Below, piece after piece: positions 13,720 to 43,211 of a stretch of 64,000 nt of DNA. The position numbers and the translations under genes were made by a program. The stretch is taken from the NCBI GenBank assembly GCA_902789245.1, contig CADAND010000012.1, positions 1 through 64,000 on the forward strand, given 5' to 3'. The notes under the pieces are model-generated. The model saw nothing but the letters and a program-made list of their open reading frames with translations. It was not told the origin of the DNA and made no database searches. The stretch comes from an uncultured Bacteroidia bacterium. Its GTDB lineage: Bacteria > Bacteroidota > Bacteroidia > Bacteroidales > UBA932. How positions within the stretch are numbered: position 1 is the stretch's first letter; each line of letters starts with the position of its first letter.

Positions 13720-15047
13720 TGTTGAAGCGACTGCTGATCATCACATATTACTGGCCCCCGACCGGTGGTTCGGGGGTTCAGCGTTGGGTGAAGTTCAGCA
13801 AATACCTGCCGGAGTTCGGCTGGCAGCCGGTCGTCTATACGCCGGAGAATCCCGAACAGCTCGCGCGCGACGAAAGTCTCCTCAACGACATTCCCGCCTG
13901 CGCGGAGGTCATCAAGACGCACATTTCCGAACCGTATGAGCTTTACCGCCGCCTGACCGGTGGTAAGGCGGGCCAGGAAGTCAATCCCGTCAACGCGCAG
14001 CGGAAGACCTGGAAGCAGCGCCTCTCGCTGTGGATCCGGGGCAATTGCTTCATCCCCGACCCGCGGGTCGGCTGGGTGCGCCCGTCGGTTCGTTTCCTGA
14101 AAAAGTATCTCCGGGAGCATCCCGTCGACGCCGTGGTCACCACGGGGCCGCCGCATTCGGTGCACCTGATCGGCCTGGGGTTGAAAAAAGCCCTCGGGCT
14201 GCGCTGGATCGCGGATTTCCGGGATCCGTGGACGGAGATGTTCTACTACAAACACCTCGGCCTTTCAGCCGCCGCCGACCGCCGTCACCGCCGGCTCGAG
14301 CAGGCCGTGCTGGACGGCGCGGACAAGATCATCAGCGTCAGTCCGCCCGTCGCCGCCGATTTCCAGGCCCGCACGAAGACCCCCGTCGTCCTGATAACCA
14401 ACGGCTTCGACGAAGCCGATTTTAGAGGCGAATCTCTGGCCAGCACGCCTGGGGTCCAGGGTTTCCCGGGCCAGAAAAAATGGCCCGAAAAATCCCTGGA
14501 CACCCCGGCTCCACAACGCCAACGCACGGAGATTCGCCTGGTACATACAGGCTTGTTCGCGGCAGATGGTAATCCGCTGAAGCTCTGGGACGCCCTGGCG
14601 GAGCGCTGCGAGGCCGATCCTGATTTCCGCGCCCGCCTGCAGATCCGCCTCGCCGGCAAGGTGGACGCCGCCATCACGGACGCCATCCGCGCCCGGGGCC
14701 TGGGCGACAACCTGGTCGAGCTGGGCTACCTCCCTCACGACGAGACCGTTCGCGAGCAGCGCGAGGCAGACATTCTCCTGTTGCCCCTTCGCCGCGAACC
14801 CGAGTACGCGAAGGTACTCCCCGGCAAGATTTTTGAATACTTGGCAGCACGACGACCCGTGTTGGGCATCGGCCAGGAAGACGGCGCAGCGGCCACCGTG
14901 CTGCGCGACGCCGCCGCCGGCGAAATGTTCGACTGGGACAAGAAAGAAGAGCTGCTGGCCTTCCTCGATGCAGCGCATCCGCAGACGGCCGGCATAGAAA
15001 AATACACCCGCCGCGCCCTCACGGAGCGGCTAGCTGAAGTGCTGTAA
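13719..15047 (+). CDS. Glycosyltransferase (GT4-like) with in-frame palindromic insertion
   Basis: 442 residues, GT-B fold. The N-terminal domain opens IITYYWPPTGGSGVQRWVKFSKYL, typical of GT4-like enzymes of envelope polysaccharide synthesis, followed by DFRDPW. The C-terminal domain has LVELGYLPHDETV and PGKIFEYLAARRPVL (nucleotide-sugar site, E-x7-E-like). Residues about 237-274 (RGESLASTPG to QRQRTEIR) are encoded by palindromic element C and interrupt the linker after ITNGFDEADF. This falls between the two Rossmann domains, so activity may be retained. It is directly followed by the YfhO-like gene with no gap. Confidence 0.82.
   Translation: MLKRLLIITYYWPPTGGSGVQRWVKFSKYLPEFGWQPVVYTPENPEQLARDESLLNDIPACAEVIKTHISEPYELYRRLTGGKAGQEVNPVNAQRKTWKQRLSLWIRGNCFIPDPRVGWVRPSVRFLKKYLREHPVDAVVTTGPPHSVHLIGLGLKKALGLRWIADFRDPWTEMFYYKHLGLSAAADRRHRRLEQAVLDGADKIISVSPPVAADFQARTKTPVVLITNGFDEADFRGESLASTPGVQGFPGQKKWPEKSLDTPAPQRQRTEIRLVHTGLFAADGNPLKLWDALAERCEADPDFRARLQIRLAGKVDAAITDAIRARGLGDNLVELGYLPHDETVREQREADILLLPLRREPEYAKVLPGKIFEYLAARRPVLGIGQEDGAAATVLRDAAAGEMFDWDKKEELLAFLDAAHPQTAGIEKYTRRALTERLAEVL
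14426..14539 (+). repeat. Palindromic element copy C inside the glycosyltransferase gene
   Basis: 114 bp (38 codons, frame-preserving) with 11-bp outer arms AGGCGAATCTC/GAGATTCGCCT. Inner stem: GGGGTCCAGGG (14451-14461) pairs with CCCTGGACACCCC (14494-14506). Apical stem: GGGCCA/TGGCCC around a poly-A loop. The 17-nt family core sits at 14509-14525, between the inner stem and the right outer arm. Confidence 0.85.
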
Positions 15048-17567
15048 ATGAAGAAGAATCTCCTGCTGTATGCCGGCATCATCGTCGGCTTGCTTGTGCT
15101 TTCCTACGCCTATGTGCCGCAGGTCCTGAGCGGCAAGATCGTCAACCAGAGCGACATCTCCGGCTGGCAGGGCATGTCCCACGAGATGATGGAATGGAAC
15201 GCCGCCCACCCCGACGACCAGACGGCCTGGACGGAGTCGATGTTCGGCGGCATGCCGACGGCCACGATCCATGCCTCCACGCGCGGCGACTGGACGCAGC
15301 AGATTTACGATTTCCTCCTGACAGGCCGCCGCCCGGCGACCTACCTCTTCATTTCGCTGCTCGGCGCCTGGCTGCTGATGCTCTCCCTCGGGATCCATCC
15401 GCTGCTGGCCGTTGGCGGCGCCATCGCCGTGACTTTCTGCTCCTACAACCTGCAGATTATCCAGGTCGGCCACAACACCAAGATGCAGGCCCTCGCCTTC
15501 CTCCCTTGGGTCCTTGCCGCCCTGATCTATACCTATAAGCGCGCCTTAGTCGGGCGCGGCAGTGCCTCCGCGCAGCCGTTCACCCGGGCAGGGTCGCGAA
15601 GCGATAGCGGAGCGGAGGCAGCTGCCGGTCCGGCGTCCTGGCTACCGGGTACCATCCTCGGCGCGGCGCTCTTCGGCCTGGCGCTGAGCTTCCAGGTCAA
15701 GGCGAACCATCCGCAGATCACCTACTATCTGGCTATCCTGATCCTAATCTACGTGATCGTCCTGGTCGTTTCGCTCCTTCGCGGCAACGGCTTCGGCAGT
15801 GCCCCCGCGCAGCCGGCCGCGAAGAAAACCCTTTGGGGCAGATTCTTCGCTGCCTCGGCCCTTCTGCTGGTTCTCGGCCTGGCCGGCATCGCCACCAACG
15901 CCACCAAGCTCCTGCCCACGATGGAATACACCCCGTACTCCATGCGCGGCGGCAGCACGGCGGCCTCCGAAGGCGGCGAAGGAGCCAAAGGCCTCGACCT
16001 GGATTACGCCACGGCCTGGTCCTACGGCTGGGAGGAACTCCCCAACCTGTTGATTCCCAATTTCAACGGCGGTTCGTCCGCCGGTGCGGTCAATCCCAAG
16101 CACTCGGAGACCTACGACCTGCTCAAGCGGGCCGGCCAGCCGAACCTCCGGGAAACGGCCAAGAACCTGCCGCTCTACTGGGGCCCGCAGCCCTTCACGG
16201 CGGGACCGATGTACCTGGGCGCCATCACGGTCTTCCTCTTCGTGCTGGGTCTGTTCCTGTATAAGGGGAAGGAGAAATGGTGGCTCGTGGCGGGGACCAT
16301 CCTTGCCGTGCTGCTCGCGCTGGGCAGCCATTTCCTCGCTTTCACGAAATTCTTCTACAACGTTGCGCCGCTCTACAACAAGTTCCGCACGGTCTCGATG
16401 GCGCTGACCGTGCTCCAGTTCACGCTCCCGATGTTGGGCTTCCTGGTGCTCGACCGCCTGGTCCGCGACCCGGAAACGGCGGCGCTCTTCCGCCAGAAGG
16501 GCTGGATTGCTGCGGCCATCACGGGCGGCTTCTGCGCCCTCTGTGTGCTATTCCCCGGCATCGCCGGGTCCTTCAGCGGCGCCACCGACGCCGGTCAGCC
16601 GGACGTGTTGGTGGATGCGCTCGCGTCCGACCGCCGCTACCTGCTGGTGATGGATGCACTGCGCTCGCTGCTGCTGATCGCGGCCGCCTTCGGGATCCTC
16701 TGGTGGGCGTTCGGCAGGTCTTCCCAGCGTGCCTCCGGACGGATGCTGGGTGCCTGCGCGCTGATTTCCGCGCTGGTGCTCTTCGACCTTGGCGTCGTGG
16801 GCAAGCGCTATCTCAATGACGACGACTTCGTCTCGCCGCGCGCCTTCCAGAGCCAGTTCGACAAGCGCCCCGTGGACGAACTGATCCTCTCCGACACCGA
16901 TCCTTCATTCCGTGTGCTGGATCTGACGGTGAACGTGTTCAACGACTCGCACCCGTCCTACTGGCACAAGAACATCGGCGGCTATTCGCCGGCCAAGCTG
17001 CAACGCTACCAGGAATTCATCGAGAGCACCCTGACGGGCGAGATCAACCAGATCTACAAGGCCCTCGGAGACGTCAAGACGCTCGCCGAGGCGGAGGCCG
17101 CGCTGCCTTACCTGCCGGGCCTCGCCTCCCTCAATTGCCGGTACATCATCCTTGACGGCGAGATGGCGCCGCTGCGCTATCCGTATGCAAGGGGGAACGC
17201 CTGGTTCGCGACGGAGGGCGAAAGTGCGCTGTCCTCCGTCGAGCTCATCTCCTACGCTCCCAACGAGCTCCGCTACCGCTATAGCAGCCCCGAGGCCGCG
17301 CGGCTGGTCTTCAGCGAAGTCTATTACCCGGTGGGTTGGACCCTGAAGGTGGAAGATACGGGCGAAGAACTTCCGATCGAGCTGGAAGGAACCCTGCTGC
17401 GCGCCGCCCAGGTGCCTGCCGGCGAGCACACGCTGGTGATGCGCTTCGACCCGCCGTCCTACCGGACCGGCGAAGCCGTCTCGCGCGCCACCTCCATCCT
17501 GCTGATCCTCGCATCTCCTTCCGCGACGACACCAGTAACCCCGCTCCTGCCCCGCCTTTTTCTGTGA
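15048..17567 (+). CDS. YfhO-like multispanning membrane protein
   Basis: 839 residues with about a dozen hydrophobic helices, an early DQTAWTESMFGGMPT segment and a large extracytoplasmic C-terminal domain (about 600-820), matching YfhO-family proteins. These are GT-C-like membrane proteins implicated in glycosylating cell-surface polymers, which fits the adjacent glycosyltransferase. Oddities: residues about 168-195 (LVGRGSASAQPF...AEAAAGPAS) come from an in-frame palindromic insertion, and the expected final hydrophobic helix stops abruptly (SILLILAS then PSATTPVTPLLPRLFL). The 3' end may therefore have been replaced or truncated. Confidence 0.75.
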   Translation: MKKNLLLYAGIIVGLLVLSYAYVPQVLSGKIVNQSDISGWQGMSHEMMEWNAAHPDDQTAWTESMFGGMPTATIHASTRGDWTQQIYDFLLTGRRPATYLFISLLGAWLLMLSLGIHPLLAVGGAIAVTFCSYNLQIIQVGHNTKMQALAFLPWVLAALIYTYKRALVGRGSASAQPFTRAGSRSDSGAEAAAGPASWLPGTILGAALFGLALSFQVKANHPQITYYLAILILIYVIVLVVSLLRGNGFGSAPAQPAAKKTLWGRFFAASALLLVLGLAGIATNATKLLPTMEYTPYSMRGGSTAASEGGEGAKGLDLDYATAWSYGWEELPNLLIPNFNGGSSAGAVNPKHSETYDLLKRAGQPNLRETAKNLPLYWGPQPFTAGPMYLGAITVFLFVLGLFLYKGKEKWWLVAGTILAVLLALGSHFLAFTKFFYNVAPLYNKFRTVSMALTVLQFTLPMLGFLVLDRLVRDPETAALFRQKGWIAAAITGGFCALCVLFPGIAGSFSGATDAGQPDVLVDALASDRRYLLVMDALRSLLLIAAAFGILWWAFGRSSQRASGRMLGACALISALVLFDLGVVGKRYLNDDDFVSPRAFQSQFDKRPVDELILSDTDPSFRVLDLTVNVFNDSHPSYWHKNIGGYSPAKLQRYQEFIESTLTGEINQIYKALGDVKTLAEAEAALPYLPGLASLNCRYIILDGEMAPLRYPYARGNAWFATEGESALSSVELISYAPNELRYRYSSPEAARLVFSEVYYPVGWTLKVEDTGEELPIELEGTLLRAAQVPAGEHTLVMRFDPPSYRTGEAVSRATSILLILASPSATTPVTPLLPRLFL
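15558..15626. repeat. In-frame palindromic insertion in the yfhO-like gene
   Basis: Arms GCAGTGCCTCCGC (15559-15571) and GCGGAGGCAGCTGC (15612-15625) pair with one bulge. An inner small hairpin TCGC-gaa-GCGA is present. It encodes a Ser/Ala/Gly-rich loop between two membrane helices, where the family has a short cytoplasmic or periplasmic loop. Confidence 0.65.
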
Positions 17568-17585
17568 GCTGTAACGTGCTGTAGA

Positions 17586-18473
17586 TCAGAAGATCCGCTG
17601 GGTCAGGGCGATGAAGTCTTCGACGCTGAGGCGCTCGGCGCGCAGGTCGAAGACCGGGTCGGAGGCGTCGAAACCCTCCGGCAGCAGCGGCTTGAGGGCG
17701 TTGCGCAGGGTCTTGCGCCGCTGGTTGAAAGCCGTTTTCACGACGGCCTTGAAGGCCTTCTCGTCGCAGCCGAGCTCCGTGCGGCCGTTGCGCCGCAGGC
17801 GGATCACGGCCGACTGCACCTTGGGCGGCGGGGCGAAGGCGCCGGAGCCGACGCTCAAGATGTAATCGATGTCATACCAGGCCTGAAGCAGCACCGAGAG
17901 GATGCCGTAGGTCTTGCTGCCGGGCTGCTCGGCGATGCGGTCCGCCACTTCCTTCTGGATCATGCAGACCACCTCGGGGATGCGGTCCTTGTCGTCGAGG
18001 ATCTTGAAGAAGATCTGCGAGGAGATGTTGTAGGGGAAATTGCCGATCACGCGGTATGCGCCCGGGAAGAGCTTGTGGATGTCCAGGCGCAGGTAGTCGG
18101 CCTGGTACAGCCGACCCTGCATGCCCGGGAAATGCGTCAGCAGATAATCCACGCTCTCCCCGTCCAGCTCCACCAGCTTCAGGTCGATGTCCTCCCGCTG
18201 CAGCAGGTACTGCGTCAGCACCCCCATTCCCGGTCCGATTTCCAACACATCCCTGACACTTCCTGCCGGGGAGAGTGCTGCCTCGCTGGACCGTGGCCAC
18301 CCATGGCCTCGTAAATGGGAGGGGCCCGCGCCGTCAGGCGTGGGAGGGATGAGCGAAGCGAAGTCTGGCGAGGCAGCACTCTCCCCGGCGGACAAAGCGG
18401 CAACAATTTTCTGAGCGACCGTGAGGTCGGTCAAAAAATGTTGGCCCAAGGCCTTTTTGGCACGAACTTCCAT
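17586..18473 (-). CDS. rsmA: 16S rRNA dimethyladenosine transferase with in-frame insertion
   Basis: 295 residues, about 30-40 longer than typical Bacteroidota KsgA. It dimethylates two adjacent adenosines in helix 45 of 16S rRNA. Landmarks: KKALGQHFLTD at the N-terminus, SAM motif I VLEIGPGMGVLTQYLL, catalytic motif GNFPYNISSQIFF and C-terminal FNQRRKTLRNALK. Residues about 29-72 are an insertion between the N-terminal helix and motif I, encoded by a repeat with a 22-bp perfect inverted repeat. The N-terminal region helps position rRNA, so the insertion could affect activity. It lies just downstream of mrp on the same strand. Confidence 0.93.
   Translation of the reverse strand: MEVRAKKALGQHFLTDLTVAQKIVAALSAGESAASPDFASLIPPTPDGAGPSHLRGHGWPRSSEAALSPAGSVRDVLEIGPGMGVLTQYLLQREDIDLKLVELDGESVDYLLTHFPGMQGRLYQADYLRLDIHKLFPGAYRVIGNFPYNISSQIFFKILDDKDRIPEVVCMIQKEVADRIAEQPGSKTYGILSVLLQAWYDIDYILSVGSGAFAPPPKVQSAVIRLRRNGRTELGCDEKAFKAVVKTAFNQRRKTLRNALKPLLPEGFDASDPVFDLRAERLSVEDFIALTQRIF
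18265..18389. repeat. In-frame palindromic insertion in rsmA (CCCTCCC family)
   Basis: A perfect 22-bp inverted repeat (18265-18286 and 18368-18389). On the minus strand the interior has two hairpins: CCCACGCC-tgac-GGCGCGGG, then CCCAT-n9-ATGGG, joined by GGCCCCTCCC. The interior matches the architecture of the hemW insertion at 52315-52449, although the stem sequences differ. Confidence 0.85.
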
Positions 18474-18476
18474 AGG

Positions 18477-19544
18477 CTAACCCAGTTTCTCGGCCAGCTT
18501 GCCGGCCAGCTCCACGAAGGCGAGACCGTCCGGGCGGTTTCCCAGGGCGGCGGGCTCACCGGCGTCGCCGCTCTCGCGGATGCCCTGCACCAGCGGAATG
18601 CGCCCCAGCAGGTCGACGCCCAACTCGCGCGCCATATCCGCGCCGCCGTCGCGGCCGAAAATGTAGTATTTCTCGTCCGGATGCTCCTCCGGCGTGAACC
18701 AGGCCATGTTTTCGACCAGGCCGAAGATGGGACGGTTCACGTTCTCGTTGCGGAACATGTTCACGCCCTTCTCCACGTCGGCGAGCGCCACGGTCTGCGG
18801 CGTCGTCACGATCACGGCACCCTCCATCGGGATGTCCTGCACCAGGCTGATGTGGATGTCGCCCGTGCCCGGGGGCATGTCGATGAGCAGGAAGTCGAGC
18901 GGACCCCACTTCACCTGCAGAATCATTTGCTTGAGGGCGTTGCAGGCCATCGGGCCGCGCCAGATCAGGGCCTGGCCCCGCTCGGCGAAGTAACCGATGG
19001 ACATCCACTTCACGCCGAACTTCTCCAGCGGGATGATGAGCTCCTGGCCCTCTTCCGCACCCGGCTCGGCGGCCGGCACGGCGCCCTCGGTACCCGTCAT
19101 CACGGGGATGGAGGGGCCATAGACGTCCGCGTCGGCGAGACCCACCCTGTAGCCCAGCCGCGCGAGCGCGCAGGCCAGGTTCACGGCCACGGTGGACTTG
19201 CCCACGCCGCCCTTGCCCGAAGCGATGCCGACGATGTGGCGCACCTCGGCGAGCTGTTCCAGGCCGAGGTTGAGGCCCTTTTTCTTCGGCTTCTCATCGT
19301 CGACGACGACGGTCTTGACCTCCGATGCGACGGAGGAAGGCAGGTGGCGGATCAGCGCCGCGCGGGCGCTGCCGATCAGGTACTCGGAGAGCGGGTCGCG
19401 GCGCTTGGGGAACGCCAGCGTCACGACCACCTTGCTGTCCGAGATCTCAATATCGTGCACCATGCCGATCTCGACGATGTCGCGGTCGGCTTTGGCGGGG
19501 TGGTGCACCTCGCGCAGCGCTTGCAGAATATCTTCTTTCGTCAT
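18477..19544 (-). CDS. Mrp/NBP35-family iron-sulfur cluster carrier ATPase
   Basis: 355 residues. N-terminal MIP18/DUF59-like domain (about 1-85), then a P-loop ATPase with deviant Walker A (IASGKGGVGKST, about 104-115), ADADVYGPSIP and LIDMPPGTGD. Proteins of this family bind and transfer Fe-S clusters. The C-terminal CxxC that bridges the cluster in E. coli Mrp/ApbC-type proteins is absent: the region reads ENMAWFTPEEHPDEKYYIFG, as I recall for Bacteroidota homologues. The stop of the upstream S46 peptidase abuts this start, suggesting co-transcription. Confidence 0.9.
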   Translation of the reverse strand: MTKEDILQALREVHHPAKADRDIVEIGMVHDIEISDSKVVVTLAFPKRRDPLSEYLIGSARAALIRHLPSSVASEVKTVVVDDEKPKKKGLNLGLEQLAEVRHIVGIASGKGGVGKSTVAVNLACALARLGYRVGLADADVYGPSIPVMTGTEGAVPAAEPGAEEGQELIIPLEKFGVKWMSIGYFAERGQALIWRGPMACNALKQMILQVKWGPLDFLLIDMPPGTGDIHISLVQDIPMEGAVIVTTPQTVALADVEKGVNMFRNENVNRPIFGLVENMAWFTPEEHPDEKYYIFGRDGGADMARELGVDLLGRIPLVQGIRESGDAGEPAALGNRPDGLAFVELAGKLAEKLG

Positions 19545-21655: not shown

Positions 21656-21656
21656 A

Positions 21657-22268
21657 TCAATCAAATAAACTTGGTTCCAATTCTTTGGGGTGGAAGGACT
21701 TGCGATGCTCCGGGCAGTAGCCGTGCGCCTTGATGGCGGCGATGTGCCCGGGGGTCGGATAGCCCATGTTGTGCTCCCATCCATATTGCGGGTACTCCCG
21801 CGCGAGCTCGCGCATGCACTCGTCCCGCCAGGTCTTGGCGAGCACGGAGGCCGCGGCGATGCTGGCGTACGTGGCGTCGCCGTGGACGACGGTCTGGTAG
21901 GGATAGCCGTCGAACGGGCGCCAGCGGTTGCCGTCCACCAGCAGGAAATCCGGCCGCACGCGCAGGTGCTGCACGGCGCGGCGCATGCCTTCCAGCGAGG
22001 CACCGAGGATGTTGAGGCGGTCGATCTCTTCGGCGCTCACGGCCTCGACGGCCCAGGCGACGGCCTCCCGCTCGATGATGGGGCGGAGCTCTTCGCGCGC
22101 CTTCTCGCTCATTTTCTTCGAGTCGTCCAGCAGGGGATGATGGAAATCGGCTGGCAGGATGACGGCGGCAGCATAGACCGGCCCCGCAAGGGGCCCGCGG
22201 CCCGCCTCGTCGCATCCGGCTTCCAGCCGGCCCGGCTCGAGATAGGGGAGAAGGGAAGGTTTGTGCAT
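21657..22268 (-). CDS. rnhB: Ribonuclease HII
   Basis: 203 residues. It removes ribonucleotides embedded in DNA and RNA primers. Signature residues: GCDEAGRGPLAGP (catalytic Asp-Glu), DDSKKMSEKAREEL, and ASIAAASVLAKTWRDECM. I choose ATG 22268 over 22277 because a promoter box TATCTTTG occupies 22275-22282, overlapping the upstream ATG. It is first in a minus-strand operon running into S46, mrp and rsmA. Confidence 0.96.
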   Translation of the reverse strand: MHKPSLLPYLEPGRLEAGCDEAGRGPLAGPVYAAAVILPADFHHPLLDDSKKMSEKAREELRPIIEREAVAWAVEAVSAEEIDRLNILGASLEGMRRAVQHLRVRPDFLLVDGNRWRPFDGYPYQTVVHGDATYASIAAASVLAKTWRDECMRELAREYPQYGWEHNMGYPTPGHIAAIKAHGYCPEHRKSFHPKELEPSLFD

Positions 22269-22274
22269 AACGCA

Positions 22275-22282
22275 CAAAGATA
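22275..22282 (-). promoter_or_regulatory. Promoter box TATCTTTG for rnhB
   Basis: Exact TAnnTTTG on the minus strand, 6 nt before the rnhB ATG, which decides the start codon. It lies just past the stop of the XRE gene. Confidence 0.6.
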
Positions 22283-35946: not shown

Positions 35947-35949
35947 CGT

Positions 35950-36927
35950 ATGGACCTTTTCCGTCAAATCCTGTCATTCGATTCCACCTCCGGCAGCGAG
36001 CGGGAGCTGGGGCAGTGGCTTGCCGCGCACCTGGAGGCTCCCTTCGTGGAGACCTTCGAGGTCGGCGACGGCACGCTGAATGTGCTGCTGCGCTGGAGCG
36101 GGACGCCCCGCGTGGTGTTCTGCTCGCACATGGACACGGTGCCTCCCTACATCCCGCCGACCTTCACCGAAGACCGCGTCCTCGGGCGCGGCTCCTGCGA
36201 CGCCAAGGGGCAGTTCTACGCGATGTATCGCGCCTGCCAGCGCCTGGCGGCAGCAGGGGAGAAGGACTTCGCCCTGCTCATCGTGAGCGGGGAGGAGACG
36301 GGCTCCTGGGGCGCCAAGGCCTTCTCGAAGACGGGCTTCACCGCGCCGCTGCTGGTCGTGGGCGAGCCCACGGACAACTGCATGGTGAGCGCCTCCAAGG
36401 GCACCAAGCGCTTCGATCTGACCTTCACCGGCAAGGCCTTCCACTCCGGCTATCCGGAGCACGGCGTGAGCGCGGTGGAGCTGTTCGTCGATTTCATGAA
36501 CGCGCTCCGTGCGGCCGGTTTCCCCGACGACCCGGTGCTGGGACCCACCACCTGGAACGTCGGCCGCCTCTCAAGCGACAACCCCCAGAACATCCTCAGT
36601 CCGCAGCTGAGCTGTCGGCTGTATTTCCGCACCACCTTCGCCTCCGACGACGCCGTGGTGGCGTGGATGCGTGCGCAGGCCTCCGACCGACTCCGGGTGG
36701 AAGAGATCGGCGGCGACGCGCCCGCGCGCTACTTCACACTCCCGGGCTTCCCCACGAAGCCGGTCGCCTTCGGCAGCGACGCCCCGCACCTGACGGGCTT
36801 CGCGCAGAAGATCATCTGCGGGCCGGGCACGATCACCGTCGCGCACCGCGACGACGAGTTCCTGTCCCTGTCCGATCTCCAACAAGCTATCAACAATTAC
36901 GTCAAGATATATGAAAGTTATCATTAG
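35950..36927 (+). CDS. M20-family deacylase, candidate succinyl-diaminopimelate desuccinylase
   Basis: 325 residues. Di-zinc M20 peptidase motifs: CSHMDTVPPY, GRGSCDAKGQFYAM, VSGEETGSWGAKAF (catalytic Glu), GEPTDNCMVSASKG and a late His in TVAHRDDEFLSL. The fold covers ArgE, DapE and LysK activities. Its position between thrA and dapB, and the presence of dapD in the same cluster, make DapE the most likely function. It is shorter than E. coli DapE (375), so ArgE/LysK-like alternatives remain. It overlaps dapB by 17 nt. Confidence 0.8.
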   Translation: MDLFRQILSFDSTSGSERELGQWLAAHLEAPFVETFEVGDGTLNVLLRWSGTPRVVFCSHMDTVPPYIPPTFTEDRVLGRGSCDAKGQFYAMYRACQRLAAAGEKDFALLIVSGEETGSWGAKAFSKTGFTAPLLVVGEPTDNCMVSASKGTKRFDLTFTGKAFHSGYPEHGVSAVELFVDFMNALRAAGFPDDPVLGPTTWNVGRLSSDNPQNILSPQLSCRLYFRTTFASDDAVVAWMRAQASDRLRVEEIGGDAPARYFTLPGFPTKPVAFGSDAPHLTGFAQKIICGPGTITVAHRDDEFLSLSDLQQAINNYVKIYESYH

Positions 36928-37573
36928 CGGTTACGGCAAGATGGGCCACATGGTCGAGGCCGTGCTGCAGCGCCGCGGCATCGAGCTCGTGTGCGCCAGC
37001 GAAGATGTCTGCGCCATTCCGAAGGAAGTGGCGAAGGAGTGTGTCTGCATCGATTTCACGACCCCGGAGGCCTTCCGGGCCAATTATAAGACCCTCGCGG
37101 CCAACTTCAAGGCCGTCGTCGTGGGCACCACCGGCTGGTACGACATCAAGGATCAGGTCTTCGCCGCCTTTGAGGCCGCCGGCACCCCGATGATCTGGGG
37201 CTCCAACTTCTCCGTGGGCGTGATCGCCCTGTTCGCCGGCATCGCCCGCACCTGCCAGGTGCTCAAGGGCCACGGCTACACCCCGCACGTCGAGGAGATC
37301 CACCACATCCACAAGCTGGACGCGCCCAGCGGCACGGCCAAGAGCATCGGCGTGCTGATTTCGGACTTCCTGGGCGAGGAGCCGAAGATCGACTCCCAGC
37401 GCATCGGCGAGGTCCCCGGCACGCACATCGCCGAATTCCTTTCCGAAGTGGACAAACTGACCTTCACCCACGAAGCCTTCTCCCGCCAGGGCTTCGCGGA
37501 AGGCGCCGTCGACGCCGCCCTCATGACCGAAGGCCTGACCGGCTGCCACGAGTTCAAGGATCTGATTCTGTAG
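36911..37573 (+). CDS. dapB: 4-hydroxy-tetrahydrodipicolinate reductase
   Basis: 220 residues, about 20-50 shorter than E. coli DapB, as in Bacteroidota. The NAD(P) site begins MKVIISGYGKMGHMVE. Further landmarks are VVGTTGWYD, SNFSVGVIALF and catalytic EEIHHIHKLDAPSGTAK. Reduces hydroxytetrahydrodipicolinate on the way to DAP and lysine. After it the cluster is interrupted for about 3 kb by minus-strand genes before resuming with dapA. Confidence 0.95.
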   Translation: MKVIISGYGKMGHMVEAVLQRRGIELVCASEDVCAIPKEVAKECVCIDFTTPEAFRANYKTLAANFKAVVVGTTGWYDIKDQVFAAFEAAGTPMIWGSNFSVGVIALFAGIARTCQVLKGHGYTPHVEEIHHIHKLDAPSGTAKSIGVLISDFLGEEPKIDSQRIGEVPGTHIAEFLSEVDKLTFTHEAFSRQGFAEGAVDAALMTEGLTGCHEFKDLIL

Positions 37574-37616
37574 GCCGGAATTGGTAACAGGAAACAGGCA
37601 TTTTCCGGTTTACTCG

Positions 37617-37934
37617 TCATTCAACCGGCTCCAGATAATTCACCTTCTTCCCGGTCCTCAGCGCATACTCGATCTCGCTCCGGGTGCTCTCACCGATGTA
37701 CCCGCCAACGTTGATCACATAGATGGCGTCCGCCATGTCGATCTTGCGCTTGTGCATGTCGTCCAGCATTTCCTTGGTGCCCTCGGTCCAGACCTCGTCG
37801 TCGCCGGAGTGCCCGAAGAGCCCGACGCTGATCACGATGTTGCCTTCGAGCGTCAGCCTCTTCTGCGCCTCCAGGAACTGCTCCTTGAAGCGCGTGCTTC
37901 CGCAAAGGGTTATGATGGGGTATTTGCCGAGCAT
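37617..37934 (-). CDS. Nucleoside 2-deoxyribosyltransferase-like / DUF4406-like protein
   Basis: 105 residues from ATG 37934. Rossmann-like start YPIITLCGSTRFKEQFLEAQ (GSTRF nucleotide-binding loop), then DMADAIYVINVGGYIGESTRSEIEYAL with the conserved D-S/T-x-S/E pattern of the deoxyribosyltransferase superfamily. Reaction unverified; it may act on a nucleoside or nucleotide base linkage. A longer frame up to 38015 would overlap the upstream gene, and the chosen start leaves 17 nt to its stop. It is third gene of the MazG/helicase operon by spacing, although its GC looks closer to the host genes. Confidence 0.75.
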   Translation of the reverse strand: MLGKYPIITLCGSTRFKEQFLEAQKRLTLEGNIVISVGLFGHSGDDEVWTEGTKEMLDDMHKRKIDMADAIYVINVGGYIGESTRSEIEYALRTGKKVNYLEPVE

Positions 37935-37951
37935 CTTTTGAAGCAGATTGG

Positions 37952-39682
37952 TTACCTCGGAATGAACCGGGACAAGTACTCCCGAAGTGATGGATTGCAA
38001 GCATAGACATAGCAACCCTTGATTCCCCGGGACATCATAACTTTGTAGGAGTTAATCAAGTATTTCTTCAATTCTTCTGCGTCTGCGCCACGCTGAACAT
38101 TCGAATCAAAATGCTTGGACGGATCAATGATGATTTGATTCTTGTCCTTGTCATAATCGATTTCTTCTCCGAAAATGACCCCGACATAATTCAAGTCGTA
38201 GCCCTGCGTGGTGTGGATACAGCCTATTTCATCGATGGAACTCGGACGGAGAATCCACTCCATATTGCTCATGTTCCAAATGTATTTATACCCCTCAATG
38301 GTAATGTCTTCCAAACCCCGGCGCTTTACCTCTTCCAACGAATTGCAGCCCTTTGAAATCCACTCCCAGGAATAACCTGCGACCGAACGGCAAAGCCCAA
38401 TCTCCTTGTCTTTGCGTTTGATCGCCTGGATCATATCTTGGATGTGCTCAAACAACCTGAAATCATAGTTCACAATCTCGTTCCTTACCAAACCTTCCTC
38501 GCATTTGAATATCCTCGACAGATAATCAATATATTCCTGGCCGCCCTTGCACCTCATCTGTGAAAACAGCCAATGATTGCTGACAGAGACTTGCTCCCGA
38601 TTGAACGCTCGTAGATACTGTTCTTCCGTGATGTCGCTTCCCTTGACGGTCTGAGCAGAATCATATACAAGAATCGAATACTTGCTGCGATTCAAGATCC
38701 AATCCAGAGAAGTATAATCATTGGGGTCTGCACCTTCTCCGTATATGGCCTCCGTCGTCTGCTTATACGAACCCATCCAGCTGATATTCTTATACTGAGG
38801 CAGGCGATGCGCTTCATCCACAAGCAGGACATCAAATTCTTCATTCGAAATGTCCGAAGGGCCGATCACCATATTCGCCTTCAACCCATGGCCCGTTTGC
38901 CGGAAAACGGCCTTCAGCGTCTTCCGGATAGACGCCATAGGCATAACCAGGGCGACCTTTAAGGGGCCGTTTTCATTAACGTACGCTGCAATCTTCCGGC
39001 GGATTCGAAGATATGGGGACAGCTCCTCTTCATCATCCGTCTCATCCATCGCGACAGCCGTCGCGTTGATCAGCCGGTTCAAAATGTTGACAAGCACGAC
39101 GCTCTTTCCTGTTCCGGCGGAGCCGTGCAAAACAAAAGAGCTTTTTATGCCAGCCCGAAGTTTATCAATGACATCATCCAAAGCGGAATAACAGGCAACC
39201 GACTGCTCCTCCGTCAGGGAATTGTACGGAGAGAATTTGAACAGGTCCGAGTTGAGGATGTCATCGTAGTTCTTGGACGCCAGCTGCATGTTCTGGAGCT
39301 TCTGCCAGATTGAACCGATTTTCGCCTGATACTTTTCGCGCTGGAAGTAATTATGCTTCTGGGACTGGCCTCCATTCCTATTCAGGAGATTCAGCTTGTT
39401 GTCAGCAGACACCAGCTGGATCAAGGATTGCTCGATGTCCAGGATTGCCGATTTGTTGAATTCGTTGTCAAACAGGATATGTATTTCCTTTAAGGACTTT
39501 CTCTCGGGGTTGTCCAGATGCTGGGTCATACGGTTGCTCGCGCTGCTGGTTTCTCCGATATAAACGTCCTTCGAGTTGGTGATCAGATACACGACGGGCC
39601 AATCCGTGCCGTTTGGAAGAAGCCGGACTTCCTCCAGGCCGGTTTTATCAAATCGAAAGGTTCTGATCTCGCTAGAGTTCAT
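37952..39682 (-). CDS. GIY-YIG nuclease domain fused to DUF2075 (Schlafen group 3-like) helicase
   Basis: 576 residues. N-terminal GIY-YIG domain at about 25-100 (VVYLITNSKDVYIGETSSASNRMTQHL), matching the Tyr...Tyr-Ile-Gly pattern and the Arg of this nuclease fold. P-loop ATPase from about residue 165 (SFVLHGSAGTGKSVVLVN Walker A; FDVLLVDEAHRLP Walker B; later CIHTTQGYDLNYVGVIFG and VMMSRGIKGCYVYA), matching DUF2075/SLFN-type SF1 helicases. Clearly lower GC than the flanks. The start at 39682 overlaps the MazG gene by 11 nt. Domain content suggests nucleic-acid restriction or defence; function unproven. Confidence 0.82.
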   Translation of the reverse strand: MNSSEIRTFRFDKTGLEEVRLLPNGTDWPVVYLITNSKDVYIGETSSASNRMTQHLDNPERKSLKEIHILFDNEFNKSAILDIEQSLIQLVSADNKLNLLNRNGGQSQKHNYFQREKYQAKIGSIWQKLQNMQLASKNYDDILNSDLFKFSPYNSLTEEQSVACYSALDDVIDKLRAGIKSSFVLHGSAGTGKSVVLVNILNRLINATAVAMDETDDEEELSPYLRIRRKIAAYVNENGPLKVALVMPMASIRKTLKAVFRQTGHGLKANMVIGPSDISNEEFDVLLVDEAHRLPQYKNISWMGSYKQTTEAIYGEGADPNDYTSLDWILNRSKYSILVYDSAQTVKGSDITEEQYLRAFNREQVSVSNHWLFSQMRCKGGQEYIDYLSRIFKCEEGLVRNEIVNYDFRLFEHIQDMIQAIKRKDKEIGLCRSVAGYSWEWISKGCNSLEEVKRRGLEDITIEGYKYIWNMSNMEWILRPSSIDEIGCIHTTQGYDLNYVGVIFGEEIDYDKDKNQIIIDPSKHFDSNVQRGADAEELKKYLINSYKVMMSRGIKGCYVYACNPSLREYLSRFIPR

Positions 39683-40001
39683 CGTATTTTGTAGCCACCC
39701 CTTTGGCCTTTTCGACAGGATATTTCCGCGCATTCTCCGCCATTTTTTCACGAACAATCGCCGGGACGTCAAGCTGGTATTTGCTCGCAATGAGGAACGC
39801 ATAGTTGAAGACATCGGCCAGTTCTTCCTTCACTTTGCCGATATTTGCTTCCTCCGGCTTTTTCCAGAGATAAAGCTCCATCAACTCCGAAGCCTCTATG
39901 GATAATGCCACCGCCAGGTCCTTTGGATTATGAAACTGATCCCAGTCGCGTTCTTCCGTAAACCGGTCTATTTCGGTCATCAATTCTTTGAATTCGTTCA
40001 T
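39672..40001 (-). CDS. MazG-like nucleotide pyrophosphohydrolase
   Basis: 109 residues, all-alpha. The MazG metal site is present as ExxE and ExxD pairs: IEASELMELYLW and KEELADVFNYA. Such proteins hydrolyse NTPs or dNTPs to monophosphates and are common in phages and defence-linked operons. It is the first gene of the operon, directly coupled to the GIY-YIG/helicase gene, with a complete promoter upstream. Codon use and GC are lower than the surrounding dap genes. Confidence 0.85.
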   Translation of the reverse strand: MNEFKELMTEIDRFTEERDWDQFHNPKDLAVALSIEASELMELYLWKKPEEANIGKVKEELADVFNYAFLIASKYQLDVPAIVREKMAENARKYPVEKAKGVATKYDEL

Positions 40002-40024
40002 GGTGGATGTGTTCTATGCCCTCT

Positions 40025-40056
40025 CAAAAATAAGTAATCCTCGGGATTATTGCAAA
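40025..40056 (-). promoter_or_regulatory. Full promoter with palindrome in the spacer (MazG operon)
   Basis: Minus strand: TTTG (40056-40053), a 20-nt spacer, then TATTTTTG (40032-40025). The spacer holds a perfect inverted repeat TAATCC-tcg-GGATTA (40035-40049), positioned as an operator would be for repression between the two promoter elements. Confidence 0.6.
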
Positions 40057-40081
40057 AAACCCGTCCGAAGTGTTTGCAATT

Positions 40082-40246
40082 TCACATCACCGCATACCGC
40101 TCCACCTCCTTTCCTCCGCGATAGATCGCCCAGCCCTTCTTGCCGCTGGGCAGGGTGATGCCGCCATACCAGCAGCCGGGCTGTCTCCCCGCCGCCTTGG
40201 CCCGCCTGAGGGCCTCTTCGGGATTCCTGAAGTAGTGTGTGACCAT
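40082..40246 (-). CDS. Small protein of unknown function (54 aa)
   Basis: ATG at 40246 to TGA at 40082. It reads MVTHYFRNPEEALRRAKAAG, then a Gly/Trp-rich stretch (CWYGGITLPSGKKGWAIYRGG) and KEVERYAVM. The composition looks like a genuine small basic protein with an N-terminal helix and a beta hairpin. A TACCTTTG promoter box lies 5 nt upstream. GC is host-like. No family recognised. It lies between the MazG operon and the palindrome cluster. Confidence 0.6.
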   Translation of the reverse strand: MVTHYFRNPEEALRRAKAAGRQPGCWYGGITLPSGKKGWAIYRGGKEVERYAVM

Positions 40247-40251
40247 GGTGG

Positions 40252-40259
40252 CAAAGGTA
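40252..40259 (-). promoter_or_regulatory. Promoter box TACCTTTG for the 54-aa ORF
   Basis: Exact TAnnTTTG on the minus strand directly before ATG 40246, supporting expression of this short gene. Confidence 0.5.
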
Positions 40260-40330
40260 CAAGTGCGTTTTGCCAGTCATTGTCACGGCGTCAATTATTT
40301 GCTTGTTGGGACCCTTCCGCAGAGTGCAGG

Positions 40331-40572
40331 CCGGGAGCGCTGGGGCCCTGTTTTGCTCCTGGGACACGTTTTTTGCGGTTCCCGGGAGCAAAATGGGCCG
40401 CTGGCGCTCCCGGCGGGAGCTTGCATTTGGGGAAGGTCTCATTTTAGGTGGCGGACCTTCCCCGCTGAATGTGGATTCTACTGCTGTCAGGGCGGTTTTC
40501 CATGGGGAAGGTGTCGGGGCTGAAATCAGACCTTTCCCATAGGAGGGGATTCCGGGTCAAGCCCGGAATGAC
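40331..40572. repeat. Cluster of four palindromes in a gene-free spacer
   Basis: About 400 bp (40247-40657) hold no convincing gene. Within them are four hairpins. 40331-40413 is a long stem whose arms start CCGGGAGCGC and end GCGCTCCCGG and also pair TTTTGCTCC with GGAGCAAAA. 40429-40463 has GGGGAAGGTC/GACCTTCCCC. 40502-40541 has TGGGGAAGGT/ACCTTTCCCA, imperfect. 40548-40572 is a GATTCCGGG...GGAATGAC unit. The second and third share GGGGAAGGT, so they are related. Likely repeat insertions beside the dapA promoter. Confidence 0.75.
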
Positions 40573-40605
40573 TATGAGGTGCCGGACATGAGGATGGCGG
40601 GGATT

Positions 40606-40635
40606 TTTGTTTATTAAAAAAGTTTATTATCTTTA
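40606..40635 (+). promoter_or_regulatory. Promoter TTTG-N18-TATCTTTA for dapA
   Basis: TTTG at 40606-40609 and TATCTTTA at 40628-40635 (one mismatch to TAnnTTTG), 22 nt upstream of ATG 40658. It gives the second half of the dap cluster its own promoter. Confidence 0.5.
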
Positions 40636-40657
40636 ACGGCAGTTAGTAAATTAGTGT

Positions 40658-41548
40658 ATGCGTATGAAACCTCTTGTTCTGCAAGGATGCGGCACGGCGC
40701 TGGTGACCCCCTTCACCGCGGACGGTGCCGTCGATTATGAAGCCTACGCCCGGATGGTGGACCGTCAGGTGGCCTCCGGCGTGGATTTTCTCGTTCCCCT
40801 CGCCACGACCGGCGAGACCCCTACGCTCTCCGCCGGCGAGAAAACGGCCATCTACCAGGTGGTCAAAGAGCATGCCCAGGGCCTGCCCCTGATGCCCGGC
40901 GTGGGCGTGAACAGCCTCCCCGACACGCTCGCCAACATCCGGCTGCTGGAGCCGCTGGGTGCCGACGCGCTGCTCGTGGTCGTCCCGTATTACAACAAGC
41001 CGACCCAGCAGGGTCAGTATGAATATTTCAAGGCCGTGGCCGCGGAGACCTCCCTGCCGGTCATCATCTACAACGTGCCCGGCCGCACCGGCGCCAACAT
41101 GCTGCCGGACACGGTCATCCGCCTGGCGAACGACGTCCCCAACATCCGGGGCATCAAGGAAGCCTCCGGCAACTATGACCAGGTCAGCGAGATCCTGCGC
41201 CGCGCCCCGAAGGACTTCACCGTCCTGAGCGGCGACGACGACATGACCCTCGCCTTCATGGCGACGGGCGCCCACGGCGTCATCTCCGTGGCGTCCAACA
41301 TCGCCCCGAAGGAGGTCTCGCAGATGGTCAAGGCCATGCAGGAGGGGCGCCTCGAGGAGGCCCGCACCCTGCACCACCGCCTCTTCCCGCTCTTCAAGGC
41401 CTGCTTCGTGGAGTCCAACCCGATCCCGGCCAAGGCCGCGCTCGCGCAGCTCGGCGTGATCGGCGAGACGGTGCGCCTGCCGCTTGCCACGGCTTCCGAT
41501 GCCACCAAGACATTGATGCAGAAAGTTTTAGGGGAGTTATGGAAATAA
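40658..41548 (+). CDS. dapA: 4-hydroxy-tetrahydrodipicolinate synthase
   Basis: 296 residues, TIM barrel. It condenses pyruvate and aspartate semialdehyde. Motifs: GCGTALVTPFTADGAVD, PLATTGETPTLS, VVPYYNKPTQQG (catalytic Tyr), YNVPGRTGANM, and IKEASGNYDQ with the Schiff-base Lys. ATG 40664 is an alternative start six bases later. It overlaps dapD by 10 nt. Confidence 0.96.
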   Translation: MRMKPLVLQGCGTALVTPFTADGAVDYEAYARMVDRQVASGVDFLVPLATTGETPTLSAGEKTAIYQVVKEHAQGLPLMPGVGVNSLPDTLANIRLLEPLGADALLVVVPYYNKPTQQGQYEYFKAVAAETSLPVIIYNVPGRTGANMLPDTVIRLANDVPNIRGIKEASGNYDQVSEILRRAPKDFTVLSGDDDMTLAFMATGAHGVISVASNIAPKEVSQMVKAMQEGRLEEARTLHHRLFPLFKACFVESNPIPAKAALAQLGVIGETVRLPLATASDATKTLMQKVLGELWK

Positions 41549-42312
41549 GCAGAGAGCGATTCGAAGAAGTCATTGCCGCGCTGGAGGCCGGCCAGCTGCG
41601 CGTCGCCGAGAAGGTGAACGGCGCCTGGAAGGTGAACCGCGAGGTCAAGGAAGTGATCCTCGCCGGCTTCAAGCTCGGCGTGATCAAGGACATGTCCCAC
41701 GGGGATTTCCCCTTCTTCGACAAGGACACCTATCCGGTGAAGGCGTTCAAGCCGGAGGACGGCGTGCGCATCGTGCCGGGCGGCACGAGCATCCGCCGCG
41801 GCGCCTACGTGGCCCCGGGCACCATCGTCATGCCCCCGTCCTACATCAATGTCGGCGCCTATGTCGACAGCGGCACCATGGTGGACAGCCACGTGACCAT
41901 CGGCTCCTGCGCCCAGATCGGCAAGAACATCCACATTTCCGCCGCCACGCAGATCGGCGGCGTGCTCGAGCCGGCCGGCGCCATGCCGACCATCATCGAG
42001 GACGGTGCATTCGTGGGCGGCAACTGCGGCATTTACGAGGGCACCATCGTGCAGGAAGGCGCGGTGATTGCTTCCGGCGTCATCATCACCGCCGCCACGG
42101 CCATCTTTGACGCCACGACGGGCGAGTTCGTGCCGCGCAACGCGGACGGCCGCGTGGTCGTGCCGCGCGGGGCCGTGGTCGTGTCCGGTAGCAAGCCGCT
42201 GAAGCGCGGCCCGGGTGCGGGCAGCGGCGTGTCGCTTTATTGCCCGGTCATCGTCAAGTACCGCGACGAGAAGACGGCCGGTTCCGTGGTTCTCGAAGAT
42301 TTGCTACGCTAG
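41539..42312 (+). CDS. dapD: Tetrahydrodipicolinate N-succinyltransferase
   Basis: 257 residues. Left-handed parallel beta-helix with hexapeptide repeats (about 95-190): GAYVAPGTIVMPPSYINVGAYVDSGTMVDSHVTIGSCAQIG, then GGVLEPAGAMPTIIEDGAFVGGNCGIYEG. Succinylates tetrahydrodipicolinate. It is slightly shorter than E. coli DapD (274). Its presence commits this organism's pathway to the acyl (succinylase) branch and supports the M20 gene as dapE. It sits in an operon between dapA and dapF. Confidence 0.95.
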   Translation: MEISRERFEEVIAALEAGQLRVAEKVNGAWKVNREVKEVILAGFKLGVIKDMSHGDFPFFDKDTYPVKAFKPEDGVRIVPGGTSIRRGAYVAPGTIVMPPSYINVGAYVDSGTMVDSHVTIGSCAQIGKNIHISAATQIGGVLEPAGAMPTIIEDGAFVGGNCGIYEGTIVQEGAVIASGVIITAATAIFDATTGEFVPRNADGRVVVPRGAVVVSGSKPLKRGPGAGSGVSLYCPVIVKYRDEKTAGSVVLEDLLR

Positions 42313-42314
42313 AA

Positions 42315-43211
42315 ATGATAGAGCTCCATAAATACTCGGGTGCAGGCAACGACTTCGTCGTGCTGGACGGCCGGAAGGAGGATGTCTCCGAGTTCCGGAC
42401 GGCCGGGCGCATTGCCGCGCTGTGCGACCGCCGGACGGGCTTCGCCGCGGCGGACGGACGCATCGGCGCCGACGGACTGATGATCCTGACCGGGGACCCG
42501 GACTACGATTTCCGGATGGAGTACTACAATTCCGACGGTTCCGGCGGGATGATGTGCGGCAACGGCGGGCGCTGCATCGTGGCGTTTGCCGACGCGCTCG
42601 GACTGAAGCCGGCCGACGGCCGCGTGTTCCGCTTCGTCGCCGCCGACGGCGAGCATACGGGCGAGATCCTCACCCGCGAGGGCGACTGCAAGACGGTGCG
42701 CCTGCGGATGATCGACGTGCACGAATTCCGTCCCGCGCTGGACGGCTGGTTCCTGGACACGGGCACGCGTCATTTCGTGCGCTTCGTGCCGGATGTCGAG
42801 GCCGTCGATATCGAGAAAGAGGGGTATGCGGCGCGCTGGGACCCGCTTTTTGCGCCCATCGGCGCCAACGCCAATTTCGTGTCTGTCGATCCGGACGGGA
42901 CGCTGCGCGTGCGCACCTTCGAGAAGGGTGTGGAGGCGGAGACGCTCGCCTGCGGCACCGGCATCACCGCCTCGGCCATCGCAGCATATTTGACGACGGA
43001 TGCCTTCCTTCGCGCCGGGGGACCAAGTTTTGCCGGGCAAGATAAAATTGCCCGTCAAATACTTGGTCGCCCCTGCTCCACAACGCCAACGCTCGCATCC
43101 GTCGAGTTTGGTATCCAGGCGCGGATTGCGCGGCTGAGCGTGGATTTTGTGCCTGGAAAGGATTGTTTTACTGACGTTTATCTGACCGGACCTGCCGATG
43201 AAATACGATAA
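42315..43211 (+). CDS. dapF: Diaminopimelate epimerase with in-frame palindromic insertion
   Basis: 298 residues; start ATG 42315 (IELHKYSGAGNDFVVLDG). Both catalytic cysteines are present: MMCGNGGRC (first) and ETLACGTGITASAIA (second). It epimerises LL-DAP to meso-DAP for lysine and peptidoglycan. After AAYLTTDAFLRA, residues about 227-263 are encoded by palindromic element D. The normal family sequence resumes at GIQARIARLSVDF. The insertion follows the active-site helix in a loop, so the enzyme may still work, but this deserves testing because dapF is expected to be essential. The gene's end overlaps the aminotransferase start by 14 nt. Confidence 0.93.
   Translation: MIELHKYSGAGNDFVVLDGRKEDVSEFRTAGRIAALCDRRTGFAAADGRIGADGLMILTGDPDYDFRMEYYNSDGSGGMMCGNGGRCIVAFADALGLKPADGRVFRFVAADGEHTGEILTREGDCKTVRLRMIDVHEFRPALDGWFLDTGTRHFVRFVPDVEAVDIEKEGYAARWDPLFAPIGANANFVSVDPDGTLRVRTFEKGVEAETLACGTGITASAIAAYLTTDAFLRAGGPSFAGQDKIARQILGRPCSTTPTLASVEFGIQARIARLSVDFVPGKDCFTDVYLTGPADEIR
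42994..43104 (+). repeat. Palindromic element copy D inside dapF
   Basis: 111 bp (37 codons). Outer arms CGACGGATGC (42994-43003) / GCATCCGTCG (43095-43104). Inner stem GACCAAGT/ACTTGGTC, apical GGGCAA/TTGCCC around an A-rich loop. The 17-nt core CTCCACAACGCCAACGC is at 43076-43092. Every stem differs in sequence from copy C yet still pairs. Confidence 0.85.

What the first reader, a model, noticed from the sequence alone, without database searches (positions are those of the whole stretch)
14426..43104. In-frame palindromic element with a constant 17-nt core and covarying stems in two conserved genes
Copies C (glycosyltransferase, 14426-14539) and D (dapF, 42994-43104) are 114 and 111 bp, both multiples of 3. 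Both are built as outer arm, inner stem, apical stem with A-rich loop, core CTCCACAACGCCAACGC, outer arm. Stem sequences differ between copies but stay complementary: outer AGGCGAATCTC/GAGATTCGCCT versus CGACGGATGC/GCATCCGTCG; inner GTCCAGGG/CCCTGGAC versus GACCAAGT/ACTTGGTC; apical GGGCCA/TGGCCC versus GGGCAA/TTGCCC. Such covariation points to selection on folding as DNA or RNA. The host proteins resume conserved sequence after the insert. The arrangement resembles the Rickettsia palindromic elements, which also insert in frame. I know of no described equivalent in Bacteroidota.
Basis: partly seen in the sequence, partly recalled or inferred. Interest (0 to 1): 0.78.

Follow-up and report, generated by a model that had tools for sequence, protein, structure and literature searches.

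The report
In-frame palindromic elements in rumen Bacteroidales
A family of roughly 110-base hairpin-forming mobile DNA pieces sits between genes and, in frame, inside many conserved genes of a genus of rumen bacteria, and its two arms stay matched while its middle is sometimes flipped, so it is a natural laboratory for how repeat DNA rewrites proteins.

Summary
Copies C and D are real, in frame, and belong to a family with 33 places in this genome (E<=0.05) and members in 21 of 151 genomes of the genus. Inserts lie in frame in conserved genes (GT, dapF, rfbD twice, pyrK, a UDP-sugar dehydrogenase here; trpC, atpG, prmC, ispG, rnpA and others in relatives); all 39 ORFs I chose to scan match Pfam. 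Orthologues without the insert exist. At the GT site five species keep the fold, with 5 of 35 pairs changed on both sides. So it works like the Rickettsia palindromic elements, in another phylum. Matched arms plus spacer inversion is the signature of replication template switching, so covariation need not mean selection on an RNA. Dispersal by RAYT-type transposases is plausible but only moderately supported (5 of 32 Y1 matches within 2 kb of a copy, 1.3 expected; 21 of 21 carriers have a RAYT-like match). New variant of a known kind; no wet evidence.

The parts
13719..15047 (+). host gene of copy C: glycosyltransferase, 442 aa with the insert
   Evidence: PF13439 and PF13579 before the insert, PF13692 after it; of 22 relatives fetched the site was visible in 20 and none has the element
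14426..14436 (+). copy C left outer arm AGGCGAATCTC
   Evidence: no counterpart seen in insert-free orthologues
14447..14509 (+). copy C inner and apical hairpin with A-rich loop
   Evidence: 4 of 24 inner-helix pairs change on both sides among 5 orthologues
14509..14525 (+). copy C unpaired core CTCCACAACGCCAACGC
   Evidence: first 12 bases identical in 6 of 6 species with the GT insert
14529..14539 (+). copy C right outer arm GAGATTCGCCT, overlapping codons E-I-R-L
   Evidence: insert-free G015 reads AAGATCCGCCT (KIRL) here
42315..43211 (+). host gene of copy D: dapF, diaminopimelate epimerase
   Evidence: TIGR00652 above cut-off, PF01678; AlphaFold model mean pLDDT 91.2
42994..43003 (+). 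copy D left outer arm CGACGGATGC
   Evidence: absent from the insert-free orthologue RUG11407
43004..43075 (+). copy D linker, inner and apical hairpin
43076..43092 (+). copy D unpaired core
43095..43104 (+). copy D right outer arm GCATCCGTCG, overlapping codons (A)-S-V-E
   Evidence: RUG11407 reads GTATCCGTCC here without the element
6630..6741 (-). copy A, full element with arms ATTCGCCGGTC/GACCGGCGAAT
   Evidence: orthologous place in G112 holds a truncated remnant in the opposite orientation
8718..8775 (+). copy B, internal-deletion derivative (hairpin mostly lost), same arms as A
   Evidence: in G112 a full element sits between nearly the same arms in the opposite orientation

Best explanation
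This is a genus-restricted (as far as searched) family of non-autonomous palindromic mobile elements that work like the Rickettsia palindromic elements: short, nearly stop-free hairpin DNA that lands between genes and, when the length is a multiple of three and the site is a tolerant loop, is translated as an extra ~35-residue loop of an otherwise normal protein. After insertion the hairpin is remodelled by template switching during DNA replication: the polymerase copies one arm onto the other, which keeps (and may create from the flanking DNA) self-complementary outer stems that differ between copies, flips the middle, and also makes internal deletions. Shown: family, in-frame insertion, orthologues without the insert, fold maintenance at one locus, opposite orientations between species. 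Inferred: translation, template switching as the cause, and single-strand transposition by RAYT-like Y1 transposases as the way it spreads.
For: Family: 33 places at E<=0.05 in this genome; 21 of 151 genus genomes. In frame: all 39 ORFs that I picked for scanning carry a Pfam family over its cut-off, though not every match straddles the insert; in 25 of 29 plus-oriented copies of the AT-rich hairpin type in these ORFs the hairpin is read in one frame (..NYFS..), 3 in another, 1 without the motif (shared insertions not removed). Insert-free orthologues: the GT insert is in 6 of the 12 species with GT DNA identity >=0.80 (own genome included, G112 with a deleted hairpin) and in none of the 20 relatives visible; the dapF insert is absent in RUG11407, the closest DapF listed. 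Insert modelled as disordered: residues 237-246 and 252-258 have pLDDT<50 in a model of mean 91.2. Arms diverse but self-complementary: 54 of 114 copies score >=8 against 3.4% of 2258 mispairings. Fold kept at orthologous positions: 98.3% of 175 cells paired, 5 pairs and 8 cells changed on both sides; slid controls 0-1 pairs; shuffles reach the 5 pairs in 18 of 500 and the covariation score in 0 of 500. Inversion (local score inverted/direct): L128 155/57, L153 47/12, L132 44/14, prmC of G090 against G097 137/39; direct at L143, L145, L151 and GT. Internal deletions at the GT locus in G112, at L139 and in copy B. Template switching is described as causing both arm homogenisation and spacer inversion (PMC8604942, abstract).
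Against: Three one-sided changes in the GT outer helix include G-U pairs each, which also fits point mutation under selection for an RNA stem. The 12-base core is identical in 6 of 6 GT orthologues at 82-91% DNA identity to the window, which neutral decay would not predict and template switching does not explain. Inversion is seen only between species; independent insertions in opposite orientation into the same arms are not excluded, least of all for A and B whose arms resemble a separate short repeat. Arms shared by many copies of this genome (GGCTTGCC/GGCAAGCC) suggest arms can travel with the element. 60 of 114 copies have no strong outer stem. The RAYT link is moderate only.
Confidence: 0.6

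Rival explanations
1. Functional structured RNA (or DNA) element: the hairpin plus unpaired core is selected for a role in mRNA stability, regulation or processing, and the stems covary because pairing is selected.
For: Compensatory changes and G-U states at orthologous positions; core unchanged in 6 of 6 GT orthologues and present in two reading frames.
Against: Copies lie in both orientations relative to genes and in unrelated genes and spacers; inversion and internal deletions are tolerated; no Rfam match inside the element in 7 loci searched; 130 of 151 genus genomes show no copy at E<=1e-4 with strict filters.
Confidence: 0.2
2. REP/REPIN-type element moved in trans by a RAYT transposase, with hairpin and core as its recognition parts (a mechanism of dispersal, compatible with the best explanation).
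For: A RAYT-like gene (its only NCBIfam match is NF047646, 39.7 bits, below the cut-off of 80) has its Y1 match 385 bp from a copy in both G000:C22 and G112:C26. 5 of 32 Y1 matches in seven genomes have a copy within 2 kb, 1.29 expected, Poisson P 0.01. 21 of 21 genomes with copies have a RAYT-like match at E<=1e-10 against 103 of 130 without (P 0.011). Another RAYT-like ORF, G000:C8:80427-81272, lies 132 bp from the copy at C8:80183-80295. Read on the other strand the core ends GTGGAG at the hairpin foot, like a GT[AG]G tag (by eye).
Against: The two best cases are one orthologous locus; several Y1 matches are weak (E 0.01-0.2); the G000 gene is split by a frameshift or assembly error; copies with CTCCGC lack the GT[AG]G tag; RAYT-like genes are also in most genomes without copies; in 0 of 10 RAYT loci of genomes L338-L347 was a copy found at E<=0.05 (one chance-level match at 0.92); elements and RAYTs may share insertion hot spots.
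Confidence: 0.5
3. Inverton: a site-specific recombinase flips the segment between the arms.
For: Middle inverted between the same arms at three G000/G112 loci and in prmC; invertons are known in gut Bacteroidales (recalled; search listing only).
Against: Arms share no sequence between most copies, unlike sites of one recombinase; many copies lie in housekeeping coding regions where a flip only changes the loop peptide.
Confidence: 0.08
4. Ancestral protein domain kept in all homologues.
For: None beyond the shared GT insert in one group of species.
Against: Orthologues without it, same DNA in unrelated genes and spacers and in several frames.
Confidence: 0.01

Closest known systems
Rickettsia palindromic elements (RPE), also Wolbachia protein-coding palindromes
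   Same: About 100-150 bp palindromes, intergenic and in frame inside conserved protein genes, tolerated by the one enzyme tested (passages of PMC10969869 and PMC2229807 read; the original Rickettsia paper was not held).
   Different: Another phylum; self-complementary outer arms that differ between copies; conserved unpaired core beside the hairpin; opposite orientations of the middle between species. Sequence similarity to RPE families was not tested.
GTAG- and CGTC-tagged REPs, including intragenic REPs
   Same: Small palindromes, some inside genes; CGTC REPs were reported in Bacteroidetes (PMC3733652, passages and section 15 read). The short repeat CGTCATTCGCCGGCTCCGACCGGCGAAT of this genome (18 pattern matches at 17 distinct places) looks like one (by eye).
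   Different: The present element is about three to five times longer, has an outer stem that differs between copies and a 12-base core; no clear tetranucleotide tag in all copies.
REP doublets (REPINs) with RAYT / TnpA-REP, Bacteroidetes subclass 2.6 'atypical secondary structures'
   Same: RAYT-like genes are common in the genus (98 of 151 genomes over the Pfam cut-off; 124 of 151 by protein search) and some lie beside copies; subclass 2.6 in Bacteroidetes is flanked by atypical structures (PMC6006769, passages read).
   Different: Association here is moderate, and the subclass of this RAYT was not tested.
Template-switch evolution of inverted repeats
   Same: Arm homogenisation and spacer inversion in coding DNA (PMC8604942) and creation or repair of perfect stems (PMC8794818); abstracts read.
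   Different: Those are sporadic repeats in yeast genes and in RNA genes; here a mobile family recurs in dozens of places.

Membership tests
Rickettsia palindromic elements | palindrome of about 100-150 bp folding into a long stem-loop | tested here: met
   111-114 bp, strong predicted folds
Rickettsia palindromic elements | in-frame insertion in conserved protein genes, host sequence resumes after it | tested here: met
   all 39 ORFs picked for scanning match Pfam; insert-free orthologues
Rickettsia palindromic elements | also present in intergenic regions | tested here: met
   21 of 28 own copies tested are not in a coding-like ORF (one search lists the 7 that are)
Rickettsia palindromic elements | sequence homology to an RPE family of Rickettsia | not tested
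   no RPE sequence was fetched; the element is in another phylum
REP/REPIN with RAYT | GT[AG]G guide tetranucleotide at the hairpin foot | tested here: inconclusive
   by eye: GTGG near the foot on the complementary strand in CTCCAC copies, GCGG in CTCCGC copies
REP/REPIN with RAYT | flanks a RAYT gene | tested here: inconclusive
   5 of 32 Y1 matches within 2 kb, 1.29 expected, two of them one locus; one more RAYT-like ORF 132 bp from a copy
REP/REPIN with RAYT | cleaved and moved by the transposase | not testable with these tools
   needs biochemistry
Site-specific inverton | inverted repeats share a recombinase consensus | tested here: not met
   arms unrelated between most copies
Site-specific inverton | both orientations in one population | not testable with these tools
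   no reads available; orientations differ between species only
Rfam RNA families | match to a described structured RNA | tested here: not met
   7 loci, one match at E 0.81 outside the element

The most novel reading that the evidence does not exclude
A protein-coding mobile palindrome whose outer stem is not its own but is written from the target: replication template switching at the hairpin copies the native flank (in GT and dapF the right arm overlaps host codons that an insert-free relative also has, and the left arm has no native counterpart) into an inverted repeat, after which the middle can flip in frame and give the host protein an alternative loop peptide.
Probability: 0.3. Interest if true: 0.85.

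Novelty: new variant of a known kind. Interest (0 to 1): 0.7.

Why it matters
In-frame palindromes have been described mainly from Rickettsia and Wolbachia, obligate intracellular bacteria with reduced genomes. A rumen/gut Bacteroidales genus with many species, repeated insertions at the same protein loops, orthologous copies with and without the insert, and opposite orientations between species makes the origin of protein-coding repeats testable, and it is a warning that textbook covariation in hairpins may come from replication rather than from selection on RNA.

Tried and rejected
Exact core as the family mark: only 2 of 80 relatives had a hit at <=1 mismatch, which suggested a species-specific repeat; the covariance model then found members in 20 further genomes. 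trpC as a case of inversion: rejected, because G140 carries a different element inserted beside what looks like a relic of the same minus-oriented one. UDP-sugar dehydrogenase plus/minus copies: arms too diverged to call inversion. L138 in G112 as an empty site proving that the right arm is native: rejected, since GCGGCAAGCC also equals the end of a deleted element. L133 as an empty site: the place is rearranged in G112. Of 33 own places compared with G112, 14 had both flanks on one stretch; I scored orientation at 10 of these; L139 and L138 gave no orientation and L148 only leaned to direct (28 against 18); L136, L144, L149 and the pyrK place differ too much and were not scored. A standalone hairpin GGCTTGCC..GGCAAGCC as target of that arm class: none in 328 kb of own sequence held (overlapping loci counted more than once) nor in the window. 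RAYT gene as a clean partner: the RAYT of >=95% identity occurs only in G000 and G112 among the matches listed (next 60%, G015). phmmer of the RAYT against solved structures gave only matches at E 0.86 or worse. For the arm test I kept 86 of 110 model matches: 22 opposite-strand duplicates and two weak further matches (in L324 and L335) were dropped. G112 was left out of the pair count because its hairpin is deleted. Whether out-of-frame genic copies exist was not tested, since my ORF test finds in-frame ones only.

Full report
What is there. Copies C and D are as described, at the stated places, and the 17-mer core is far beyond chance. The whole genome holds 9 exact cores and 17 with at most one mismatch. 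A covariance model built from 17 copies finds 33 places in the genome at E<=0.05 when opposite-strand duplicates are removed (my count). It finds members in 21 of 151 genomes of the genus at E<=1e-4, with at most 25 candidates scored per genome, so these are lower bounds. The nearest named relatives of the host by DapF are rumen Bacteroidales MAGs; the genus is probably Cryptobacteroides, which I infer from lower-ranking named hits.

Anatomy. A full copy is: left outer arm, a short C-rich linker, an inner hairpin with an apical stem, an unpaired core CTCC[AG]CAACGCC(NN)CGC, then the right outer arm. The inner hairpin comes in types: an AT-rich one (most copies of this genome, and in frame in many genes of relatives) and the one of C and D (GGGTCCAGGG.../...CCCTGGAC). 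A third variant has GGAGTCTTCCAGAC on the left and no core on the right (for example C2:102825, L385). The outer arms vary widely and are self-complementary: 54 of 114 copies (28 own, 86 from relatives) score 8 or more, against 3.4% of 2258 arms paired with another copy's partner; 60 do not reach 8. Two arm classes recur in this genome, GGCTTGCC and ATTCGCCGGTC; the second resembles a separate short hairpin with 17 distinct places, as if the long element sat in its loop.

In-frame insertions. 52 of 114 copies lie in an ORF with coding-like third-position GC, a rough filter that includes some false ORFs. I picked 39 likely ORFs and scanned them against Pfam (one of the 40 entries is the same rfbD gene twice); all 39 have a family above its cut-off, though not every match straddles the insert. 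In this genome: GT, dapF, rfbD at two sites, a dihydroorotate-dehydrogenase electron-transfer subunit (pyrK) and a UDP-sugar dehydrogenase. In relatives: trpC, a methionine-synthase-like protein, atpG, an ABC protein, an MBOAT protein, a radical-SAM protein with a HemN C-terminal match, citrate lyase ligase, mutY-like, ispG, mannose-6-phosphate isomerase, prmC, rnpA, citX and others (gene names inferred from the Pfam families). C and D read the core in different frames (APGVQ..APQR against RAGGP..STTP). Of 29 plus-oriented copies of the AT-rich type in these ORFs, 25 use the ..NYFS.. frame, 3 another, and one has lost the motif (read; shared insertions not removed); five of six frames of that hairpin are stop-free, so this bias hints at a filter on the peptide. 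The AlphaFold model of DapF is confident (mean pLDDT 91.2) except in the insert, where residues 237-246 and 252-258 fall below 50.

Presence and absence. The GT insert occurs in G000, G182, G129, G256, G151 and, with its hairpin deleted, in G112; G090, G140, G236, G097, G015 and G008, also at 80% DNA identity or more, lack it, as do the 20 relatives whose site was visible (2 of 22 were not). DapF: the closest orthologue listed, RUG11407, lacks it, RUG14425 has the same type with a matching arm change, two others carry the other hairpin type at the same spot, and still others carry different repeats there. The loop is a hot spot. In both genes the right arm overlaps codons that an insert-free relative also has, while the left arm has no native counterpart. 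This is suggestive only, because the left side lies in a variable linker.

Covariation. On the five full GT orthologues, 98.3% of 175 cells pair; 5 of 35 pairs change on both sides, 3 vary on one side (each with a G-U state), 3 cells are unpaired. Slid controls reach 0-1 double changes; shuffles reach the 5 pairs in 18 of 500 and the covariation score in 0 of 500. Alone this would argue for selection on folding. But comparison with G112, for which I held 701 kb, shows another process: of seven loci where orientation can be read, three (L128, L153 which is copy B, and L132 which is copy A) have the middle or its remnant inverted, four have it direct (three further loci were uninformative, one leaning to direct). 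prmC of G090 and G097 shows the same flip inside a coding gene. Arm homogenisation together with spacer inversion is what template switching between inverted repeats produces (abstracts of PMC8604942 and PMC8794818). I therefore take remodelling by replication as the more likely cause of the matched arms, without excluding selection; the unchanged 12-base core is not explained by it.

Dispersal. RAYT-like Y1 transposase genes are common in the genus (98 of 151 genomes over the Pfam cut-off; 124 of 151 by protein search). All 21 genomes with copies have such a match, against 103 of 130 without (P 0.011). One gene has its Y1 match 385 bp from a copy in G000 and in G112 at the same locus; 5 of 32 Y1 matches in seven genomes have a copy within 2 kb, 1.29 expected under a uniform model, P 0.01; a further RAYT-like ORF of G000 lies 132 bp from a copy. 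The gene beside the copy is intact in G112 and split in G000 by a frameshift or assembly error. Several Y1 matches are weak, and RAYT loci of genomes without copies show none nearby. So mobilisation by a RAYT is plausible, not shown.

What is in print. My searches listed in-frame palindromes in Rickettsia and Wolbachia, intragenic REPs in several other bacteria, CGTC REPs in Bacteroidetes and atypical RAYT-flanking structures in Bacteroidetes, but no report of in-frame palindromic elements in this genus. Most subscription journals are not in that library.

Verdict. A real and unusual family: like the Rickettsia palindromic elements in how it works, not shown to be one by descent, and with two features that I did not see described for them in the passages read: self-complementary arms that differ between copies, and opposite orientations of the middle at orthologous places.

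Noticed in passing
L397 (G112:C26) and L378 (G000:C22), upstream of the RAYT gene: The left arm plus linker is amplified as a tandem array of about 15 bases (GGCTTGCCATCCCCA in G112) next to the element.
   Followed up: partly
L070 (G006) and L090 (G009): dapF of other species carries long in-frame tandem peptide repeats, including one of cysteine-rich units, at other sites.
   Followed up: no
L157, L161, L174: The dapF loop of other species holds a different short repeat in frame (peptides CHPERSEGS, CHPEPVEGS, CHSERSEES).
   Followed up: no
L292 (G140 trpC): Nested in-frame repeats: a second element type inserted beside a likely relic of the minus-oriented element that G151 and G182 keep whole.
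   Followed up: partly
G000:C7:54095-54206 (L133) against G112:C72: The two flanks of this copy match opposite strands about 2.9 kb apart in G112, so the element sits at a rearrangement breakpoint.
   Followed up: no
L136 (G000:C10:68434) against G112:C56: At the orthologous place G112 has the short ATTCGCCGG hairpin instead of the long element.
   Followed up: no
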